Below, piece by piece: positions 6,990 through 17,861 of a DNA stretch of 17,937 nt (positions within the stretch are counted from its first letter, which is position 1; the number at the start of each line of letters is the position of its first letter). The stretch is from positions 1 through 17,937 of the forward strand of contig JAUYMQ010000139.1 of NCBI GenBank assembly GCA_030698575.1, read 5' to 3'. This DNA is from Deltaproteobacteria bacterium (lineage in GTDB: Bacteria > JAUYMQ01). The notes beneath the pieces are model-generated. The model had not been told where the DNA came from. It did not search any database and was given only the letters and a program-made list of their open reading frames with translations. The translations under genes were made by a program, and so were the position numbers.

Positions 6990-7304
6990 CTATTTAGCAC
7001 GTCCCAGAGCCTTAACGAGCGCTTCGTGAAGTTTCGGCACGGATTCAACTGCTGTCGTCCAAACCACGTCATTGTCCGTCGCCCAATAGTGATGCGCAAT
7101 CCGGTCGCGCATTCGGACCATTGGTGACCACTCGATTTCCGGGAGGTCATCCTCAATAGACGGATCCGCTTCCAGTGCTGATTTGGCAGCTTCACCAATC
7201 ACCACAATTTGGTAGAGGATGGCATCGCGAAGGGTCTGATCGCTATCGAAGGCTTTGCGACCGCGGTCGCATAGGTCTGAATCATCTGGGCGGCCGTTAG
7301 ACAA
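6990..7304 (-). CDS. hepT: HepT-like ribonuclease toxin (HEPN domain, DUF86)
   Basis: A 104-residue HEPN-domain protein. The catalytic signature R-x4-H-x-Y is RDRIAHHY (residues 66-73), preceded by the conserved helix AILYQIVVIGEAAK. HepT proteins are RNases that are neutralised when the partner MntA adds AMP to the tyrosine of this motif, here Y73. The start is a TTG (7304-7302) inside the end of mntA, overlapping by 8 bases; no in-frame ATG lies nearby. The first helix appears about ten residues shorter than in typical family members (DDSDLCDRGRKAFDSDQTL), so the N-terminus may be eroded. Base composition is lower in GC than in the flanking chromosome, which fits acquisition by transfer. 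Confidence 0.85.
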   Translation of the reverse strand: MSNGRPDDSDLCDRGRKAFDSDQTLRDAILYQIVVIGEAAKSALEADPSIEDDLPEIEWSPMVRMRDRIAHHYWATDNDVVWTTAVESVPKLHEALVKALGRAK

Positions 7305-7590
7305 GCATCGACTCGCGCATAGCCGTCGATCTGATCGGCTCTCTGAGGCCGTTTATCGTGACGACGTCGACTGGATGACCGAGTAGTTCCTCGAGCCGCA
7401 GTTCCAATCGCGCCAAGTCCAGCAGTGATCTACCAGGCTTCAGCGAGACGAGGAAGTCTATATCGCTGCGCTCGTCTTCCTCCCCTCGGGCGACAGAGCC
7501 AAACACACGTATGTCCACAGCGCCGCTGGCGAGCGCGGTGCTTCGGATTGCTTCTCTCAGCTCCTTGAGTCGATCAAGCAACCGCATCAT
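7297..7590 (-). CDS. mntA: MntA-type minimal nucleotidyltransferase antitoxin
   Basis: A 97-residue DNA polymerase beta-like nucleotidyltransferase. The active site is GSVARGEEDERSDIDFLV: G31-S32, then D43 and D45, the GSx10DxD pattern of MNT antitoxins. These enzymes transfer AMP to the HepT toxin and so block its RNase activity (type VII toxin-antitoxin). It starts at tandem ATGs (7590-7585) and ends inside hepT, as expected for a coupled antitoxin-first operon. The upstream region holds a near-palindrome (7596-7612) that could be an operator. Confidence 0.9.
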   Translation of the reverse strand: MMRLLDRLKELREAIRSTALASGAVDIRVFGSVARGEEDERSDIDFLVSLKPGRSLLDLARLELRLEELLGHPVDVVTINGLREPIRSTAMRESMLV

Positions 7591-7834: not shown

Positions 7835-7939
7835 AGCAAAACCGACGCTGTTGCCTCGGATCATCCCGCCGCGGCTGTGATCTCCGGCTGGATCAAACAG
7901 CACACGACAACGGCGCAGCAGGGGAATCTGTTTGCCTAG
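7835..7939 (+). pseudogene. Possible 3' remnant of a gene convergent with the DUF5131 gene
   Basis: After the hairpin element a plus-strand frame reads about 34 codons, including HPAAAVISGWIKQHTTTAQQGNLFA, and stops at a TAG (7937-7939). That stop shares the palindrome CCTAGG with the TAG of the minus-strand DUF5131 gene. The xxLFA ending looks like a genuine protein C-terminus, but no family is recognised and no upstream part survives. This may be noise. Confidence 0.2.
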
Positions 7940-8691
7940 GCTTCGGCGGCCAGCGCAACCGGGTAGTTGCTCCATTCGCGACCTTCGAGCAGTCGCCCGC
8001 CCGATCGAGCCGTCCGGCCGCCCCATTGCTTCCAGAAAAATGCCACGCCCTTACGGACGCACAGATCTCTGAGCTCGCGAGCCCAGGCCGGATCGCAGGC
8101 GCGGTGGGTCGCGCCGCTCTCGCCGCCACCGATAACCCAGTCGATTCCGTCGAGGTCGAGACCATCGAGCGAGCCGAGGAGCGGCTCCGCGCTGATAAAA
8201 CGGACGGCAGCCGGGATGAGGCGCAGCGCGTCTGCCCGCGAGGCGACATTCATGTCTTCGATGGACGTCCCAATCCAGATGTTCTCGTTCCACGTCAGAC
8301 GATCGGCCAAGCGCAGGGCGCGCTCAGGCCGTTTGGTGAGCACCTGGAACTGATGCCAGTGTGCACGGTTCATGACGTCGAACACGCGTTGAATCAGATC
8401 GAGCGAGAAATGCGCGTGAAACACGTCGGACATGCTGTTGACGAACACTCGGCGCGGTTCCGGCCAGCGCAGGGGTTGATCGAGGCGCGCAGGCCAGAAG
8501 CGCGGAGCGAACGGGTCGGCGCGGTTGGCTGCCGTGTTCTTGAGTGGAGTGCCACGTAGATAGACGTCGCGGACTTTCGTGTGCGCCAGCGACAGTGCGT
8601 AGCAATTGTCGCAGCCGCGCGAAATCTTTGTGCACCCCGTCATGGGATTCCACGTCGCGTCCGTCCACTGAATGCCGGTTTTCAGTCCCAT
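7936..8691 (-). CDS. DUF5131 family protein (phage Gp37/Gp68-like)
   Basis: A 251-residue protein opening with GIQWTDATWNPMTGC and CTKISRGCDNCYA, a C-x6-C-x2-C cluster that is the hallmark of the DUF5131/Gp37-Gp68 family. Further family blocks are RVFVNSMSDVFH, FQVLTKRPERAL, IWIGTSIEDMNVASRADALRL, RFISAEPLLGSLDGLDLDGIDWVIGGGESG, and the C-terminal CVRKGVAFFWKQWGG. The fold resembles radical-SAM-like enzymes, and the cysteines may bind an iron-sulfur cluster. The family is common in phages and integrated elements, and its activity is not established. It starts at the ATG at 8691-8689. The frequent partner gene (three-Cys-motif protein TcmP) is absent, so the gene is isolated here. Confidence 0.92.
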   Translation of the reverse strand: MGLKTGIQWTDATWNPMTGCTKISRGCDNCYALSLAHTKVRDVYLRGTPLKNTAANRADPFAPRFWPARLDQPLRWPEPRRVFVNSMSDVFHAHFSLDLIQRVFDVMNRAHWHQFQVLTKRPERALRLADRLTWNENIWIGTSIEDMNVASRADALRLIPAAVRFISAEPLLGSLDGLDLDGIDWVIGGGESGATHRACDPAWARELRDLCVRKGVAFFWKQWGGRTARSGGRLLEGREWSNYPVALAAEA

Positions 8692-9220: not shown

Positions 9221-9523
9221 GCTCCGCGCGCGTTCCACAAGAAGCCTAAAGGTGAGTTTGCTGGTCCGTGAGGAGGCGGTCGTGCTGATCCCTGCGACTG
9301 GCGACTCAGGCGCGGCTGTCGCGCCTTCGATCCGGCATGTGGCTATCGGCGTGCACCATGAAGCAGAGGATTGCAGTGGAATTGCCGCAAATCCACCCCT
9401 TCGTGCCGCAAAAACACCCTAACGCTGTCACGTGGCGGCCCCATCTTCGCAGCTGGAGCTGCGAGGTCCGGGTCGTTTAACACCTGTAGTGGGCCTTCAC
9501 TTCCGGGAACGGACGAGATCCGC

Positions 9524-11737
9524 ATGCTGCCAGATGGCTTGCCCCACCTACGAATTTCAACGGCTCTGGCACGCAGCGAAGCTGTCGTCGTGCGGGGGGG
9601 TGGCGATACGTACACCCGTGAAGACGTTGCCGCTCATAGTCGAGCCCTGCGAGCCGCCTTCGGGCGATCCCTCCAGAACTTTGAGGGAAAGTTAGACGCT
9701 GACCTGGCTGCTGACCTGATAGTGCAGGTGACCACAAGCCCCGGTAGATCCGCAGCAAAAGAGCGCCAACACCTGAAGAATCTAGGCTTTGAAATCGTTT
9801 CGCTGAGTTCCAGCGAATCCAATGTTGCCGTCGCAAGGATCAGCCGAGACCTCATCCCAAGGCTTGCTCAGAAGCTCGATCGATATGCCGACTCTAGTCG
9901 GCATATCGGCAAGACCAACTTCGCCGCTATCGAATCATTAACGCCCGTCTCCGTAGAACGAAAGATTGAACCAGGTCTTGCGGATGCGGCGAGAGAACAG
10001 GCTGTAAACTGCCTAGTAACGCTGTATGCATCACTTCCTACAGAGATGAAGGCGACCGTCGCAACCAGAATAGCTGGAGGTCTTCGAGAAAGAGGGAAGA
10101 GGGAAGTTGCTACCTACTCGTACGCGAACGGAATAGTGGGTATCGCCGCCACTCTAACGAGAGCTGAGATGACGGAAATAGGCGAACAATACATGTTTGT
10201 TCGATCATTCGAAAACAACACTGAGGTTGTCTCAGAAGCAGCGATTCAGGCTGATCCCGTTCCTGCAATAATACAAATTGAGCACGTGCAGTGCGAAATG
10301 CCGGCTGTTGTCGTTGATTCGGGCATCAATGGCAACTGCTCGTTGCTCGCGGGATTGGTGCTGAGAACTATTAATGAATTGCCTCAAGGGACCGCGGGCC
10401 CGCACGCAGCTCACGGGACGTTTATAGCCAGCCGGGTGATCTACGGCGACGACATTACCACTGTGCTGAACCACCGAGCGCTCCCTTGGTGCCCGGTCAT
10501 CGATGTTCAAGTCACGGGCATGGATAATGTTGGAAATCGGGTCTTTCACACGCCAGCAAAACTTGGGGAGATACTTCAAAGGGTCGTTCCCACGATAGCG
10601 AGTCAATCCAAGGTCGTAAATCTCTCTCTAGGGACGAATCCCATTGCAGAGGGACAATACTCTACGCTCGCACGACTGATAGACTTTCTGTCTCGCGAGC
10701 ACAAGGTACTGTTCATCATCTCTGCCGGAAACATTCAGAATCCGACCGCGAATCCTCCAGCACATTACCTGGACTCAAATAGCAGAATCCTTTCTCCCAG
10801 CGAGGCCCTACTGGCTCTCACCGTGGGCTCGATCGCACGTTTTTGTCAAGAGAATTGTGTAGCCCGCGAACGGGAGATCAGCCCTTTTTCGCGGAGGGGC
10901 CCGGGAGCAGACCGAGCATTAAAGCCTGAACTGGCCATGCATGGCGGCAACGTGGCTTTCGATGGGATGGGTTGGACCACGACCCCGATCGTCGCTGCGT
11001 ACGGCCTCGATCGGGACGGTGCGCATCTCTCTTACAACACTGGGACAAGCTTCTCGGCGCCCCTGGTCGCTCAGTTTGCAGTTAGGTTGTTCGACGCATA
11101 CCGAGGTGCCAGCCCAAACCTGGTTCGCGGTCTCTTGTGTCATTTTGCCGAGCCGGTACGTACTCCGTCTCCCGGTGCTCCTGTGGCGGCTCACGATTTT
11201 TGTGGCTTCGGAGAGCCGCGAATCCAGAATGCGCTCTTTGCCACCAACCACTCGTCGGCATACCTGTTTGAGGGGGAGATCGAGAAGGATACCTATTTGT
11301 ACATCCCCTTCCATGTTCCTCAAGAGCTGGTGAATGACCCAGCGTCTCGACTTAGGATTCGCGGTACCGTGGTATTCGACCCCCCAGTGAGTGCGGATGA
11401 CTCTGTCAATTATTCCCTGTGCCGCGTAGCGGCGCGGCTGAGGAAACGCGTTCAAGGTGGTCTTCGAGAACAGGCCATCGGTGGTGATGAAGAGGATGCG
11501 CTTTACCCTTGGAATCCTCTCATCCACTTTGAACACTCCTTTAGGCGCGGTTACGCCTCGGGTGAATGGGAACTTCGCCTAAGACTAATGACCCGTGGCG
11601 ACTTGGAGGCGGGCTTTCGACAGAGTGTTGCGGCGGTCATCGAGATCGTTGATGAAAGCGGCAGTGTTGATGTTCGAAACGCAATTCAGAACGAGGCGCC
11701 CGTTTTTGCACCGGTCCAACTTAGATTCGCGGCGTAA
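9524..11737 (+). CDS. Subtilisin-like (S8) serine protease, IetS-like
   Basis: 737 residues from the ATG at 9524, chosen because it begins MLPDGLPHLRIS, matching the PHL-type start of large S8 proteases that pair with an AAA ATPase; a TTG at 9371 would add 51 low-quality residues. The catalytic triad is D265 (VVVDSG), H297 (AAHGTF) and S511 (NTGTSFSAP), with oxyanion N403 (IISAGN). An N-terminal domain of about 250 residues and a beta-rich C-terminal domain flank the catalytic core. There is no signal peptide, so it acts in the cytoplasm. The layout resembles IetS, the protease of the IetAS toxin-antitoxin/anti-phage pair, but no IetA-like ATPase gene is present on either side. GC is visibly lower than in neighbouring genes, suggesting transfer. 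The protease assignment is firm; the IetS link is by architecture only. Confidence 0.9.
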   Translation: MLPDGLPHLRISTALARSEAVVVRGGGDTYTREDVAAHSRALRAAFGRSLQNFEGKLDADLAADLIVQVTTSPGRSAAKERQHLKNLGFEIVSLSSSESNVAVARISRDLIPRLAQKLDRYADSSRHIGKTNFAAIESLTPVSVERKIEPGLADAAREQAVNCLVTLYASLPTEMKATVATRIAGGLRERGKREVATYSYANGIVGIAATLTRAEMTEIGEQYMFVRSFENNTEVVSEAAIQADPVPAIIQIEHVQCEMPAVVVDSGINGNCSLLAGLVLRTINELPQGTAGPHAAHGTFIASRVIYGDDITTVLNHRALPWCPVIDVQVTGMDNVGNRVFHTPAKLGEILQRVVPTIASQSKVVNLSLGTNPIAEGQYSTLARLIDFLSREHKVLFIISAGNIQNPTANPPAHYLDSNSRILSPSEALLALTVGSIARFCQENCVAREREISPFSRRGPGADRALKPELAMHGGNVAFDGMGWTTTPIVAAYGLDRDGAHLSYNTGTSFSAPLVAQFAVRLFDAYRGASPNLVRGLLCHFAEPVRTPSPGAPVAAHDFCGFGEPRIQNALFATNHSSAYLFEGEIEKDTYLYIPFHVPQELVNDPASRLRIRGTVVFDPPVSADDSVNYSLCRVAARLRKRVQGGLREQAIGGDEEDALYPWNPLIHFEHSFRRGYASGEWELRLRLMTRGDLEAGFRQSVAAVIEIVDESGSVDVRNAIQNEAPVFAPVQLRFAA

Positions 11738-12495: not shown

Positions 12496-13746
12496 ATGAT
12501 CTCCTTCCCCAAGCGTGAGCGCGCCCACCATGCCGCGGCCTGCGTCGGCGTCGATGCCGGCAAGTTCTCCCACACGTTGGTCGTCCGTCCGCAGCACCAG
12601 CCTGATTCCAAGCCGTTCAGCTTTCCGACCACCCGCAGCGGGTTTGACACGGCGGTCGCCTTCATCCGGCAACAAGTCCCGGGCGCCGCGGCTACGACGA
12701 TCCTCGTCGGCATCGAGTTCGCCGGGAACTACGGCTTCACCTTCGCCCACTACCTCGCCCAGCTCGGCTTCCCGATCGTGAGCGTGCTCCCCGCGCATAC
12801 GAAGCGCTGGAAGGACGTCGCGCACAACCAGCCCCTGAAGACCGACGCGAAAGACGCCGGCACCATCACCGATCTCTTGGCCCAGGGGCACTTCGTCACC
12901 TTCCCGTTCCTGTCGCCCGCGTACGCCGATCTGCGCTACCTGGTCACGGCACGGGAGCGACTCTCGCTGCTCCGCCGCGGGGCGATCACGCAGCTCCGCA
13001 CGCTGATCCAGGTGGTCTTCCCCGAGTTCGAGGCCCTCTTTCCGCTCATCGCCAAGAAGACGCCGTTCACCGTGCTCCGGACCTTCCCGACGCCCCAGGA
13101 CCTGCTCGACGCCACGAGGACCAAATTGCTGCGCGTCCTGAAGACCGCCAGCCGCGGCCACCTCGGCGCCGAGACCTACGACAAACTCGTCGCGGCGGCC
13201 CGGGCCACCCTCGGGCTCCCCGGCGCCCAAGCCCGCCTCCGACAAGAGATCCTGCTCACCCTCGAGCGGATCGCGTTGTTCGAGCGGCAGATCAAGGCCC
13301 TCGAGACCGAGCTCGTGGAAGCCCTCCAGGCCGTCCCGGAGACGCCGTATCTCCTGAGCATCCCCAAGGTCGCGCCCGTGACCGCCGCTGTCTTCCTCGG
13401 CTCGATCGGCGACCCGCGCGCCTATGAGGCGGGGGAGCAGATCCTTCGGGTCGCTGGCCTCTCGCTGATCGAGCGCTCGAGCGGCGTGCTCCGGGGCACG
13501 AAGCGCATCTCCAAACGCGGGCGGCCGCTGCTGCGCCAGGCCGCCTACATGTTCGCGGTCCGCAGCATCACGAAGGGCAGCCTCTTCCGCGCCGAGTACG
13601 ACGCCCTCTGCCGGCGCAACGGGGGCGTCAAAATGAAAGCCGTGGTCGCCGTGATGCGCTCCGGGCTGCGGCTGCTGTACAGCATCGCCCGCGATCGGCG
13701 GCTGTTCACCATCGCGCCGCCGGCCGTGCGGCGGGTGGCGGCATGA
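12496..13746 (+). CDS. tnpA: IS110 family transposase (RNA-guided DEDD recombinase)
   Basis: 416 residues. The N-terminal RuvC-like DEDD domain has D20 (VGVDAGK), E73 (VGIEFAGNYG), D116 and D119 (KTDAKDAG). The C-terminal Transposase_20 domain contains IPKVAPVTAAVFLGSIGDP and GLSLIERSSGVLRGTKRISKRG, with the nucleophile at S327 or S328. All residues needed for activity are present, and the frame is intact to the TGA at 13744-13746. These enzymes insert the element with the help of a bridge RNA that pairs with target and donor DNA. AGGGGG four bases ahead of the ATG is a ribosome binding site partly hidden in a hairpin. High GC matches the host. Confidence 0.96.
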   Translation: MISFPKRERAHHAAACVGVDAGKFSHTLVVRPQHQPDSKPFSFPTTRSGFDTAVAFIRQQVPGAAATTILVGIEFAGNYGFTFAHYLAQLGFPIVSVLPAHTKRWKDVAHNQPLKTDAKDAGTITDLLAQGHFVTFPFLSPAYADLRYLVTARERLSLLRRGAITQLRTLIQVVFPEFEALFPLIAKKTPFTVLRTFPTPQDLLDATRTKLLRVLKTASRGHLGAETYDKLVAAARATLGLPGAQARLRQEILLTLERIALFERQIKALETELVEALQAVPETPYLLSIPKVAPVTAAVFLGSIGDPRAYEAGEQILRVAGLSLIERSSGVLRGTKRISKRGRPLLRQAAYMFAVRSITKGSLFRAEYDALCRRNGGVKMKAVVAVMRSGLRLLYSIARDRRLFTIAPPAVRRVAA

Positions 13747-15422: not shown

Positions 15423-16109
15423 TTATGATGTGACCTCTTCAGGCGGATAGAGCACGCGCTTTGCGATGCCGTGAAGGATTGGGTCTTGAATGCCATGAAA
15501 ACTGAAGGCGCGGGAGCGCGCCTTCAGAAAGAGGAATACTTCTCGCCACGGCCACTGCTCGACCGCCAAAGCGTTGCGCGTTCTATGGCGCGGTGCCAGT
15601 CTCACCCGCTCCTGCTCTTTCCGGTACTGAATACCGACATCAAAACCGTCCCACCGGGGTGCCAACTCGACCGCAAGGTCAATGTCATTCACGCGCTCGG
15701 CATCGGTCAGGTAGCTGCCGAAAAGCACGACACGCTTGACGCGATAGGCGAACTCTTCGGATTGGTTGACCTGTTCGACACGCGCCATGAATTCGCGGAG
15801 CTTGCGCTCCGCCGTGGCGCGCCGGAGCGGGGCCGCAGCGGATGCTTGCGCGAAGCCGTTGCCTTCGTCCGTAAGCTCATACCACGGGCCAACCGCATGG
15901 TCCCCTGGGCCAATGACCACACGGGGTTCACGTAGCTGAGTCGGGTCACGGTAGAGCGTTCCGACTAGCCCTTTCGCGAGCAGCACCTCCAGCAATCCGG
16001 CGTCCCGAAAGTACCCGGCGACCACCGTCGCGCCCATGAACCTGAGCAGCAGGTCGCGGACCTTCATCACCGGCACGCCGGCGATCTTGTCGCGTGGATC
16101 AATGCGCAC
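15423..16109 (-). CDS. Winged-helix nucleotidyltransferase domain protein
   Basis: 228 residues from a GTG (16109-16107); an ATG at residue 15 is an alternative start. Residues about 13-85 look like a winged-helix DNA-binding domain (KVRDLLLRF...YELTDEGNGFAQAS). A linker helix (RRATAERKLREFMARVEQVN) then leads to a polymerase beta-type nucleotidyltransferase active site, VVLFGSYLTDAERVNDIDLAVEL, with G131-S132, D142 and D144. The C-terminal REVFLFLKARSRAFSFH resembles the conserved end of this group. Proteins with this build occur as stand-alone genes and as antitoxin-like partners of HEPN proteins. It is the last gene of a three-gene operon, 49 bases after the HEPN-like gene. Substrate unknown. 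Confidence 0.85.
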   Translation of the reverse strand: MRIDPRDKIAGVPVMKVRDLLLRFMGATVVAGYFRDAGLLEVLLAKGLVGTLYRDPTQLREPRVVIGPGDHAVGPWYELTDEGNGFAQASAAAPLRRATAERKLREFMARVEQVNQSEEFAYRVKRVVLFGSYLTDAERVNDIDLAVELAPRWDGFDVGIQYRKEQERVRLAPRHRTRNALAVEQWPWREVFLFLKARSRAFSFHGIQDPILHGIAKRVLYPPEEVTS

Positions 16110-16158
16110 GCTACGCTGCGCCCAGGTAGGTCAACTCGCGCATAGCTTAATACCGAGA

Positions 16159-16710
16159 CTACGAGCGAAGCACCTGCAAGAACGCGTGCAACGCTCTCGG
16201 GAGGAGCCTGATCTGCTCATCGACAAGCCGCGGCAGCAGGATTGGCCGGGGCTCAAGGTGATCCTGCACGAGGAACCCTGACGTGAAGAAGAATTTGGAG
16301 GGCCGACTCCCATCTGACACGCCGAAGCGCAGTCGGGGTCTCTCGGGGTTCACGCGAAACTGAACGTTGGCGTGGCCTAGCGCCGGGAGTCGAAGCGTGT
16401 ACTCCAGGCGCATGTGCCTTGGCCCGATCACGCTGCCATGGTGGAAATCCCGGATGCGAAGTTGGTGCACCAGACGCCAGCGCGGGGCCATCCGGACAAT
16501 GAGGCGGTCCCATTCCGCGAGGCCGACAGTCAACTCGCCCCGGTTCGCGGCTTCGCGCATCAGTTCGACGGGAGCGCGGAGGAAGTAGACAGCGGCCATC
16601 CAGTGCCGAAACGCAGCTGTGGCGTTGGTGGCCGATCTCGCTTCGGTGTCGAAGAACGAGGCCCGTTCGAGATGTTCAGCGATGCCGCGGACCGCGTGGT
16701 GCTGTCTCAC
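16159..16710 (-). CDS. Hypothetical protein with HEPN-like Rx4H motif
   Basis: 183 residues from a GTG (16710-16708) that lies 24 bases after the E2-like gene. The N-terminal half is helical (VRGIAEHLERASFF, AAFRHWMAAVYFLRAPVELM). It ends in RLVHQLRIRDFHHG, where R85-x4-H90 fits the Rx4-6H catalytic signature of HEPN ribonucleases, after helices in the expected order. The C-terminal half is beta-rich (LEYTLRLPALGHANVQFRVN, RLRFGVSDG) and closes with a helix (LLPRALHAFLQVLRS). A direct nucleotidyltransferase neighbour strengthens the HEPN idea, because HEPN and MNT genes commonly pair. No named family is certain, and the motif alone could be chance. Confidence 0.6.
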   Translation of the reverse strand: MRQHHAVRGIAEHLERASFFDTEARSATNATAAFRHWMAAVYFLRAPVELMREAANRGELTVGLAEWDRLIVRMAPRWRLVHQLRIRDFHHGSVIGPRHMRLEYTLRLPALGHANVQFRVNPERPRLRFGVSDGSRPSKFFFTSGFLVQDHLEPRPILLPRLVDEQIRLLPRALHAFLQVLRS

Positions 16711-16734
16711 GGAGAATCTCTTCGGTTGCTAGGG

Positions 16735-17742
16735 TTATCCGCCGAACAGGCGAACGCCGGACGGGGAGAGCCATTGCAGCGTGATCTTGTCGGCTCTCGG
16801 CATCTCTGCACTCGTTCCGACGAGCCACTGCACGACGGTCTCGGGCGGTCGCCGAGGTCCTCGGTGTGGGTTCCGCATGCGGAAATCTTTCAGTCTGCCG
16901 TAGGCTCCCAGTCGCACGTCTCCGTCATGGCAGCATTGCTCATAGAGACGTCCGCAATCGCATCCGCAAAACTCGCCGGCCCGATGTTCGATAACCCGCT
17001 CGTGAGCCGTGTGGAGAATCTGCCGTCCCGGCCATCGGCCTAGGCGCTTCAGGTGTAGGTGGCGCGCAAGCCAAACCGATTGCAGATCAAGAAAAACCAC
17101 CGCGGACTGGCCACGTCGCCACGTTCCGTCGCTTACTTCGAACGCGCAGACGCTTCCATCTGGGTAATTGGTGTGACGCTCCCCGACCCATATACCAGGT
17201 GACCACCACGCCCATGACGCTGGCCAGCGGTCATATGCTCGAGGCCAAGCTGTCAGGAGCAATGCGCTGTCTGGCAAGCCCCTAATGGGCTGAATCCGGT
17301 TCAAGAGGATGACCATGTCGGGCGTGGCGTGCACCCTGACCCCCGGGTACGCCACCTCCACGCCCGACAAATCCCCGGTCAAGCACTCGGCTTCGAACTC
17401 GCCGACGACCGATGTGGAGGCACTGGCCTCCCCTTGTCGTGGGGCGGCCGATCCTTCGGCCGCCCGTGCCCTTCCGGTGGACCCTTGCCATGATCTGGCT
17501 GAGGATCCTCCCGCTCGCGTTCGTCCATCTGCCAAATCCTCCTCTATGCCCGGATCGACGGGGGGAGGAGTCGCGCCGGGCTCGACGACGCCTCCCGAAA
17601 ACACAAATGGCTGACCACCGGCATCGAGCACCGCGCCCACCGCCCCCAAGCGACTGATGCCCACCGAAAGCGTGTCATGCACTTGGCGCTCCGCTCTGTT
17701 GCGTTCGCGAGCTTGCTCGGGACCTATTGCCGGCCGTGTCAT
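16735..17742 (-). CDS. E2 (ubiquitin-conjugating)-like protein with cysteine-rich C-terminus
   Basis: 335 residues from the ATG at 17742; the true start is uncertain because the first 110 residues are Gly/Ala/Ser/Pro-rich with no clear fold. The core (about 125-255) resembles bacterial E2-like domains. GERHTNYPDGSVCAFEV places H190-x-N192 ahead of D196-G197-S198 and C199, parallel to the HPN...G.I.C line of E2 enzymes, where the cysteine carries the ubiquitin-like thioester. VVFLDLQSVWLARHLHLKRLG then forms the following helix. The tail FCGCDCGRLYEQCC (C259, C261, C263, C270, C271) is likely a zinc-binding knuckle. No E1, JAB protease or ubiquitin-like gene is in the window. It heads the operon with the HEPN-like and nucleotidyltransferase genes. 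Confidence 0.68.
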   Translation of the reverse strand: MTRPAIGPEQARERNRAERQVHDTLSVGISRLGAVGAVLDAGGQPFVFSGGVVEPGATPPPVDPGIEEDLADGRTRAGGSSARSWQGSTGRARAAEGSAAPRQGEASASTSVVGEFEAECLTGDLSGVEVAYPGVRVHATPDMVILLNRIQPIRGLPDSALLLTAWPRAYDRWPASWAWWSPGIWVGERHTNYPDGSVCAFEVSDGTWRRGQSAVVFLDLQSVWLARHLHLKRLGRWPGRQILHTAHERVIEHRAGEFCGCDCGRLYEQCCHDGDVRLGAYGRLKDFRMRNPHRGPRRPPETVVQWLVGTSAEMPRADKITLQWLSPSGVRLFGG

Positions 17743-17787: not shown

Positions 17788-17861
17788 TTAAACCGTCAAG
17801 TCACACGCACGTTACGTGCGTGTGACTTGATAAACCGTACCGCATCTGCGAGTTTAACCGT
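17788..17861. promoter_or_regulatory. Perfect 16-bp palindrome with repeated TAAACCGT motifs
   Basis: TCAAGTCACACGCACG (17796-17811) and its exact complement (17815-17830) flank a TTA loop. TTAAACCGT (17788-17796), TAAACCGT (17831-17838) and TTTAACCGT (17853-17861) surround it at spacings close to whole helical turns. It lies upstream of the E2-like gene and just ahead of a possible divergent gene. It may be an operator or a recognition site for replication or recombination. Confidence 0.65.

What the first reader, a model, noticed from the sequence alone, without database searches (positions are those of the whole stretch)
15423..17742. Three-gene operon: E2-like, HEPN-like, nucleotidyltransferase
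Seen: three minus-strand genes with gaps of 24 and 49 bases. The first has HxN...DGSxC and a cysteine-rich tail, the second Rx4H after helices, the third a GS...DxD nucleotidyltransferase with a winged helix. Known: HEPN/MNT pairs are RNase toxin-antitoxin modules, and bacterial E2-like proteins work in anti-phage conjugation systems (CBASS type II, Bil). Inferred: an E2-like protein joined to a HEPN/nucleotidyltransferase pair, without E1 or JAB, could be a new conflict system in which conjugation or nucleotide transfer controls an RNase.
Basis: partly seen in the sequence, partly recalled or inferred. Interest (0 to 1): 0.8.

Follow-up and report, generated by a model that had tools for sequence, protein, structure and literature searches.

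The report
E2-like gene hiding a second gene
The first gene is a real bacterial relative of ubiquitin-conjugating enzymes, but the supposed three-gene toxin system is not seen in any other genome found; instead, this enzyme family carries a second small protein gene written inside it in another reading frame and usually sits beside DNA-damage-type immune regulators, which suggests an undescribed stress or anti-phage module.

Summary
The three minus-strand ORFs and their 24- and 49-base gaps are real. Gene 1 is a genuine E2/UBC-fold protein: confident model, best structural match the E2 of an E2-containing CBASS, invariant HTN and DGSxC, and a SEC-C-like CxC…CC tail. Gene 3 is a nucleotidyltransferase, weakly matched to MNT profiles. 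Gene 2's HEPN label rests on an Rx4H motif expected by chance; its fold could not be modelled. The triad is not repeated. In 70 E2 loci no relative of gene 2 or 3 was found, and seven loci with gene-3 relatives lack gene 1 and gene 2. Following gene 1 gave something better. All 68 assessable copies, the window's included, carry a nested +1-frame ORF of 41–63 codons. It has its own ATG, usually a strong Shine-Dalgarno, and a conserved peptide (…DPQPDHGKGPPDGKGRPVDHGRPVPPHRSSAQ…). Substitution phasing shows selection on the nested frame; the E2 frame is open in 40 of 40 representatives, against 1.7 expected. About 67 of 70 loci have an upstream CapH/CapP-like, ImmA or WYL regulator. I infer a damage-inducible solitary E2-like module with a co-encoded small partner. 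Its function is untested.

The parts
16735..17742 (-). gene 1: solitary E2-like protein (N-terminal helix/hairpin domain, disordered linker, UBC-fold domain, SEC-C-like tail); a GTG at 17682 is an alternative start
   Evidence: 41-sequence alignment, AF2 model, structural matches, PADLOC E2 hits in relatives down to 3e-4
17379..17528 (-). nested overlapping ORF, +1 frame, MDEREREDPQPDHGKGPPEGHGRPKDRPPHDKGRPVPPHRSSASSKPSA*
   Evidence: conserved in all 68 assessable copies; frame-specific substitution pattern; frame-0 openness test
17538..17543 (-). AGGAGG Shine-Dalgarno, 9 bases before the nested ATG
   Evidence: sequence; SD-like site in 63 of 68 copies
17581..17721 (-). N-terminal helix + hairpin domain of gene 1 (residues 8-54)
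   Evidence: AF2 block pLDDT mostly 92-97, 80 at its end; G36, L39, D40 and G51 nearly invariant
16969..17418 (-). UBC/E2-fold domain (residues 109-258)
   Evidence: pdb_via range 109-258, best match 8yjy_B Z 8.8
17146..17175 (-). HTN ... DGSVC: HPN-like motif and candidate catalytic cysteine C199
   Evidence: H190, T191, N192, G196, S197 and C199 invariant in 41 sequences
16930..16968 (-). SEC-C-like CxC..YxxCC motif, predicted zinc site
   Evidence: C259, C261, C270 invariant and C271 nearly invariant; Pfam SEC-C 0.0012 in a relative
   Evidence: no hits; Rx4H at chance level; uninformative model
15423..16109 (-). gene 3: minimal-type nucleotidyltransferase with an N-terminal region that may be winged helix
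   Evidence: relatives on plasmids
15678..15719 (-). GS...DID nucleotidyltransferase motif of gene 3
17796..17830 (.). perfect 17-bp-arm palindrome with 1-base centre, 53 bases upstream of gene 1; operator-like

Best explanation
Gene 1 belongs to a family of solitary E2 (UBC-fold) proteins, found mainly in Proteobacteria and apparently undescribed, that carries a second, overlapping small gene. One ORF gives an E2-like protein: N-terminal helical domain, disordered linker, UBC domain with HTN and a Cys, and a SEC-C zinc tail. Inside the linker-coding stretch, a strong internal Shine-Dalgarno and ATG start a ~48-aa Pro/Gly/His-rich protein in the +1 frame. Shown computationally: the E2 fold, both frames under selection, and recurrent upstream CapH/CapP-like (XRE + ImmA/IrrE peptidase) or WYL regulators. 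Inferred: the regulators repress the unit until DNA damage or phage attack; E2 and the small protein are then made from one mRNA; the E2 cysteine forms a thioester and modifies a target, charged by a housekeeping ThiF-type enzyme or without E1, as may happen in E2-only CBASS; the nested protein is its dedicated partner (inhibitor, adaptor or substrate). In the window, genes 2 and 3 are probably a separate neighbouring pair.
For: 67 genome loci plus 3 plasmid loci carry the E2 family. Invariant HTN/Cys and CxC..CC. AF2 pLDDT 82.5; top match CdnG-E2 of Serratia CBASS Z 8.8/8.3, then mostly UBC/UFC1/RWD rows. PADLOC CBASS E2 profiles hit relatives at 3e-4 to 8e-4. Nested ORF in all 68 assessable copies. 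Substitution rates by E2-codon phase: nested region 0.605/0.301/0.291, E2 core 0.349/0.308/0.642; mean pairwise identity 0.56 in frame +1 against 0.32 in frame 0 and 0.27 in frame 2. E2 frame open in 40/40 representatives against 1.7 expected when nested codons are resampled synonymously; the third frame is open in 4/40. Upstream regulators in 64/70 by clustering plus 3 by inspection; PADLOC capP (16 neighbours, best 8e-75) and WYL (8). CapW and CapH+CapP respond to DNA damage beside CBASS and other immune operons (PMC13373217). R. etli already has the nested ORF annotated as WP_157700430.1.
Against: No expression, conjugation or phage data. Foldseek alone gave no significant PDB hit, Z 8.8 is moderate, and Pfam has no E2 hit. 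The nested C-terminus is variable and lacks a terminal Gly, which argues against a classical modifier. No conserved E1, JAB, Ubl or effector gene lies beside it. The regulator upstream of the window copy lies beyond the contig end. Two relatives have response regulators instead (L054, L060). The locus set came from an exact-motif scan and so is not an unbiased sample.
Confidence: 0.6

Rival explanations
1. The three genes form one conflict system: a HEPN RNase toxin and an MNT antitoxin controlled by E2-mediated conjugation.
For: Co-directional with gaps of 24 and 49 bases; gene 3 is a nucleotidyltransferase. A HalB-like nucleotidyltransferase lies behind the WYL regulator in 4 of 70 E2 loci (two lineages), so E2 plus nucleotidyltransferase is not unique.
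Against: No relative of gene 2 or 3 in 70 E2 loci; gene-3 relatives lack E2 and gene 2; HEPN motif at chance level; order HEPN-MNT is the reverse of the usual.
Confidence: 0.08
2. Gene 1 is a degenerate or solitary remnant of type II CBASS: an E2 that acts on nucleotidyltransferases encoded elsewhere or nearby (HalB-like, or gene 3 here).
For: Best structural match is the CBASS CdnG-E2; CBASS E2 profiles hit; CapP/WYL regulators are typical of CBASS; nucleotidyltransferase neighbours in 5 loci including the window.
Against: No CD-NTase or CBASS effector recurs among 118 neighbour proteins; gene 3 hits MNT rather than CD-NTase profiles; the family has its own N-terminal domain, SEC-C tail and nested gene.
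Confidence: 0.2
3. The nested ORF is not translated; the frame +1 signal reflects an RNA or DNA element inside the E2 gene.
For: No proteomic evidence was available here.
Against: Frame +1 third positions vary twice as fast as its first and second; own ATG and stop in every assessable copy, SD-like site in 63 of 68; length varies in multiples of three.
Confidence: 0.07

Closest known systems
E2 of E2-containing CBASS (Serratia marcescens CdnG-E2, PDB 8yjy/8hsb)
   Same: UBC fold as best structural match (Z 8.8), HxN-type motif and catalytic-position Cys, no E1 or JAB in the local operon
   Different: no CD-NTase or CBASS effector; extra N-terminal domain, SEC-C-like tail and nested gene; 13% identity over the structural match
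CapH+CapP and CapW/BrxR immune-operon regulators
   Same: upstream neighbours match capP, Peptidase_M78+HTH and WYL families; mostly divergent orientation
   Different: these are the regulators, not the E2; the damage response was not tested here
Bil and Bub bacterial ubiquitination-like operons
   Same: E2-type enzyme, same classes of upstream regulators (PMC13373217)
   Different: no E1, Ubl or JAB genes beside it
HEPN/MNT (type VII) toxin-antitoxin pairs
   Same: gene 3 has a minimal nucleotidyltransferase motif
   Different: gene 2 not shown to be HEPN, reverse gene order, extra N-terminal domain on gene 3, pairing not repeated
Out-of-frame nested genes such as phage Rz/Rz1 (own knowledge)
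   Same: small protein fully nested in another frame of a larger gene, both under selection
   Different: found in a bacterial E2-like gene; unrelated proteins

Membership tests
E2 / UBC-fold proteins | UBC fold | tested here: met
   AF2 pLDDT 82.5; best pdb_via Z 8.8 with E2, most listed rows E2/UFC1/RWD; Foldseek alone weak
E2 / UBC-fold proteins | HPN-like motif followed by catalytic Cys | tested here: met
   HTN and DGSxC invariant or nearly so in 41 sequences
E2 / UBC-fold proteins | thioester formation and transfer | not testable with these tools
   needs biochemistry
Type II CBASS | CD-NTase cyclase next to the E2 | tested here: not met
   gene 3 hits PDC-S09/MNT, not cyclase profiles; no recurrent cyclase in the 25 families shown for neighbours
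Type II CBASS | CBASS effector gene nearby | tested here: not met
   none recurs among 118 neighbours; L004 alone has a separate SAVED/JAB/E1-E2 set
Bil / Bub | E1 and JAB in the operon | tested here: not met
   ThiF relative and JAB motif in 1 of 70 loci, in a separate CBASS-like set
Bil / Bub | ubiquitin-like (beta-grasp) modifier gene | not tested
   the nested peptide is Pro/Gly/His-rich and looks disordered; no beta-grasp search was done
HEPN/MNT toxin-antitoxin | MNT domain | tested here: met
   weak Polbeta / NTP_transf_2 / PDC-S09 hits, GS..DID motif
HEPN/MNT toxin-antitoxin | HEPN domain with Rx4-6H | tested here: inconclusive
   motif at chance level; no profile hit; model pLDDT 41
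HEPN/MNT toxin-antitoxin | MNT gene 5' of HEPN gene | tested here: not met
   gene 2 precedes gene 3; usual order from PMC3710099
HEPN/MNT toxin-antitoxin | recurrent pairing of the two genes | tested here: not met
   seven gene-3 relatives, none with a gene-2 relative
Overlapping (nested) gene pair | both frames under purifying selection | tested here: met
   phase-specific substitution rates and frame-0 openness; frame-0 residues in the overlap are weakly conserved beyond lacking stops
Overlapping (nested) gene pair | both products made | not testable with these tools
   needs ribosome profiling or mass spectrometry

The most novel reading that the evidence does not exclude
A stress- or phage-induced bacterial conjugation system in which the E2-like enzyme and its dedicated small, disordered partner or substrate are written in two frames of the same DNA, with no E1, Ubl or protease in the operon: a peptide-based, non-beta-grasp version of ubiquitin-like conjugation.
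Probability: 0.15. Interest if true: 0.9.

Novelty: new variant of a known kind. Interest (0 to 1): 0.68.

Why it matters
Bacterial E2-like proteins are known from multi-gene immune operons. A large family of solitary E2-like proteins with its own regulators, and with a conserved protein hidden in a second frame, would extend bacterial ubiquitin-like biology and give one of the better-supported cases of conserved out-of-frame gene overlap in cellular organisms. In the two annotated plasmid records seen, the E2 gene was truncated in one and not listed in the other, so the module is easy to overlook.

Tried and rejected
HEPN fold of gene 2: AF2 without homologs gave pLDDT 41, so no fold search was run; no relatives in plasmids, viral contigs or PDB sequences. 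Gene-3 relatives were not found in 299 genomes of the phylum of G066, 195 of the phylum of G028, or 15 genomes carrying the E2; weak, nearly full-length relatives turned up on plasmids. The E2 family was not found in the viral contigs or in phage records. The phylum of Geomonas (G062) gave only a few E2 hits. A shared operator palindrome upstream of the E2 genes: the window's is exceptional, but no common motif was found. The hairpin plus T-tract inside gene 3 (15502-15527) looks like a terminator but lies in coding sequence. Literature searches in the held library found no description of this family or its nested gene; the library lacks most subscription journals.

Full report
What is there. 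The window is a whole 17,937-base contig (C288) of a fragmented genome of 4.1 Mb in 653 contigs; every relative offered was of a different family and told only as 'same domain'. The three minus-strand ORFs exist as described: 17742-16735, 16710-16159 and 16109-15423, with gaps of 24 and 49 bases.

Gene 1 is a real E2-like protein. The window protein alone gives only a weak PADLOC E2 hit (E 0.11), but it has relatives at about 35% identity on three alphaproteobacterial plasmids and in 67 further genome contigs, mostly Alpha-, Beta- and Gammaproteobacteria with some Deltaproteobacteria and a few others. In an alignment of 41, the motif W[IV]GxRHTNxxDGSxCA and the tail CxC...YxxCC are invariant or nearly so. 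Members hit PADLOC CBASS E2 profiles at 3e-4 to 8e-4, and the tail hits Pfam SEC-C, best E 0.0012, in two members. An AlphaFold2 model from 40 sequences has mean pLDDT 82.5 and pTM 0.78, with an N-terminal helix/hairpin domain, a disordered stretch around residues 60-107 and a folded UBC domain. The best structural matches are two entries of the Serratia marcescens CBASS CdnG-E2 complex (Z 8.8 and 8.3), followed mostly by UBC, UFC1 and RWD domains; Foldseek alone found nothing significant.

Genes 2 and 3. Gene 3 is a nucleotidyltransferase (LFGS...DID; Pfam Polbeta 9e-4, NTP_transf_2 0.003, PDC-S09 5e-6). Weak but nearly full-length relatives exist on plasmids of Actinomycetota, Alphaproteobacteria and Aeromonas. 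Gene 2 has no relative or profile hit anywhere tried. Its Rx4H is expected by chance: a shuffle of this protein has at least one in 83% of cases. Its single-sequence model is uninformative. So 'HEPN' is not shown.

The triad is not a recurring unit. No ORF in the 70 E2 loci is a relative of gene 3, and gene 2's one weak hit (E 0.024) is at chance level. A looser nucleotidyltransferase motif finds 4 loci (two lineages) with a HalB-like enzyme behind the WYL regulator (NCBIfam 3e-55 and 5e-52, just under the curated cut-off), which is not detectably related to gene 3. The seven loci with gene-3 relatives contain neither E2 nor gene 2. MNT is normally upstream of HEPN (PMC3710099), the reverse of the order here.

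The unexpected finding: a gene inside the gene. Translating the N-terminal part of the E2 gene in all frames showed a conserved peptide in the +1 frame in all 41 relatives inspected. Of 71 copies, 68 could be assessed and all have it, 41-63 codons long, most often 47-48; 63 have a Shine-Dalgarno-like site before its ATG. In the window it is 17528-17379, preceded by AGGAGG, and reads MDEREREDPQPDHGKGPPEGHGRPKDRPPHDKGRPVPPHRSSASSKPSA. Two tests support dual coding. First, substitutions in the nested stretch concentrate at the third codon position of the nested frame (0.605 against 0.301 and 0.291), whereas in the E2 core they concentrate at the third position of the E2 frame (0.642 against 0.349 and 0.308). 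Second, if the nested codons are resampled synonymously with local codon usage, the E2 frame would be open in 1.7 of 40 representatives; it is open in 40 of 40, while the remaining frame is open in 4 of 40. These representatives are related, so the combined probability is not exact, but the contrast is large. The frame-0 residues in the overlap are poorly conserved (identity 0.32), which fits a disordered linker in the E2 protein. In Rhizobium etli NXC12 the nested ORF is already annotated as a separate hypothetical protein, WP_157700430.1, with the E2 truncated.

Context. 64 of 70 loci fall into clusters of upstream regulators (XRE-ImmA fusions, separate ImmA peptidase and XRE proteins, or WYL proteins), and three more do on inspection; the rest are one contig edge and two response-regulator loci. 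The clusters are single-linkage, so the sub-counts are approximate. Of 118 neighbour proteins from 37 representative loci, 21 match Peptidase_M78 and 7 WYL in Pfam, and 16 match PADLOC capP. CapH+CapP and CapW are DNA-damage-responsive regulators of CBASS and other immune operons (PMC13373217). Genes downstream of the E2 are variable and often on the other strand. One Sinorhizobium locus has a separate set of CBASS-type genes (SAVED effector, JAB, E1-E2) about 1 kb downstream. In the window the upstream side runs off the contig.

How it may work. Shown by computation: the E2 fold, the conserved motifs, the nested gene and the regulator association. Inferred: repression released by damage or infection, co-production of the E2 and the small protein from one message, thioester chemistry at C199, and a partner role for the nested protein. 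The nested C-terminus is variable and lacks a terminal glycine, so a classical modifier is less likely than an adaptor, inhibitor or substrate. For the window itself, the simplest view is that genes 2 and 3 are a separate pair lying downstream of an E2 module.

Verdict. What replaces it is an E2-like family, not found described in the held literature, with a conserved overlapping gene and immune-type regulators. It is a new variant of bacterial E2-type modules, with function still to be tested.

Noticed in passing
window 9371-11737 (+): IetS-like subtilase of the IetAS anti-phage system (PADLOC 2.5e-75; NCBIfam below its cut-off). Whether an IetA partner is present was not checked.
   Followed up: no
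window 7297-7590 and 7936-8691 (-): A second MNT (PDC-S09, 1.4e-31) close to a radical-SAM mobile-pair-like protein (PDC-M41B, 2.3e-89): other candidate defence genes on the same contig.
   Followed up: no
window 12496-13746 (+): IS110-family RNA-guided transposase between the IetS region and the three genes.
   Followed up: no
window 17796-17830: Perfect palindrome with 17-bp arms and a 1-base centre, far longer than in shuffles (mostly 4-6 bp). L024 and L016 have 12-13 bp palindromes in the same region of their E2 genes.
   Followed up: partly
L026:4226-4960, L041:4150-4872, L053:4151-4873 and L067:4150-4872 (-): HalB-like nucleotidyltransferase (Hailong family) directly behind the WYL regulator, divergent from the E2; two lineages.
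   Followed up: partly
L004:8026-11637 (-): CBASS-type genes (SAVED effector, JAB, E1-E2) about 1 kb downstream of the E2 module in Sinorhizobium sojae.
   Followed up: yes
L003:6837-7052 (+): 71-aa protein just downstream of the E2 with a twice-repeated GGSYRSAxSGxxVTxxxGKxxPxTTV motif, shared by about a dozen, mostly rhodobacteral, loci.
   Followed up: no
window 15502-15527 (-): Strong hairpin plus T-tract, terminator-like, but inside the 3' part of gene 3.
   Followed up: no
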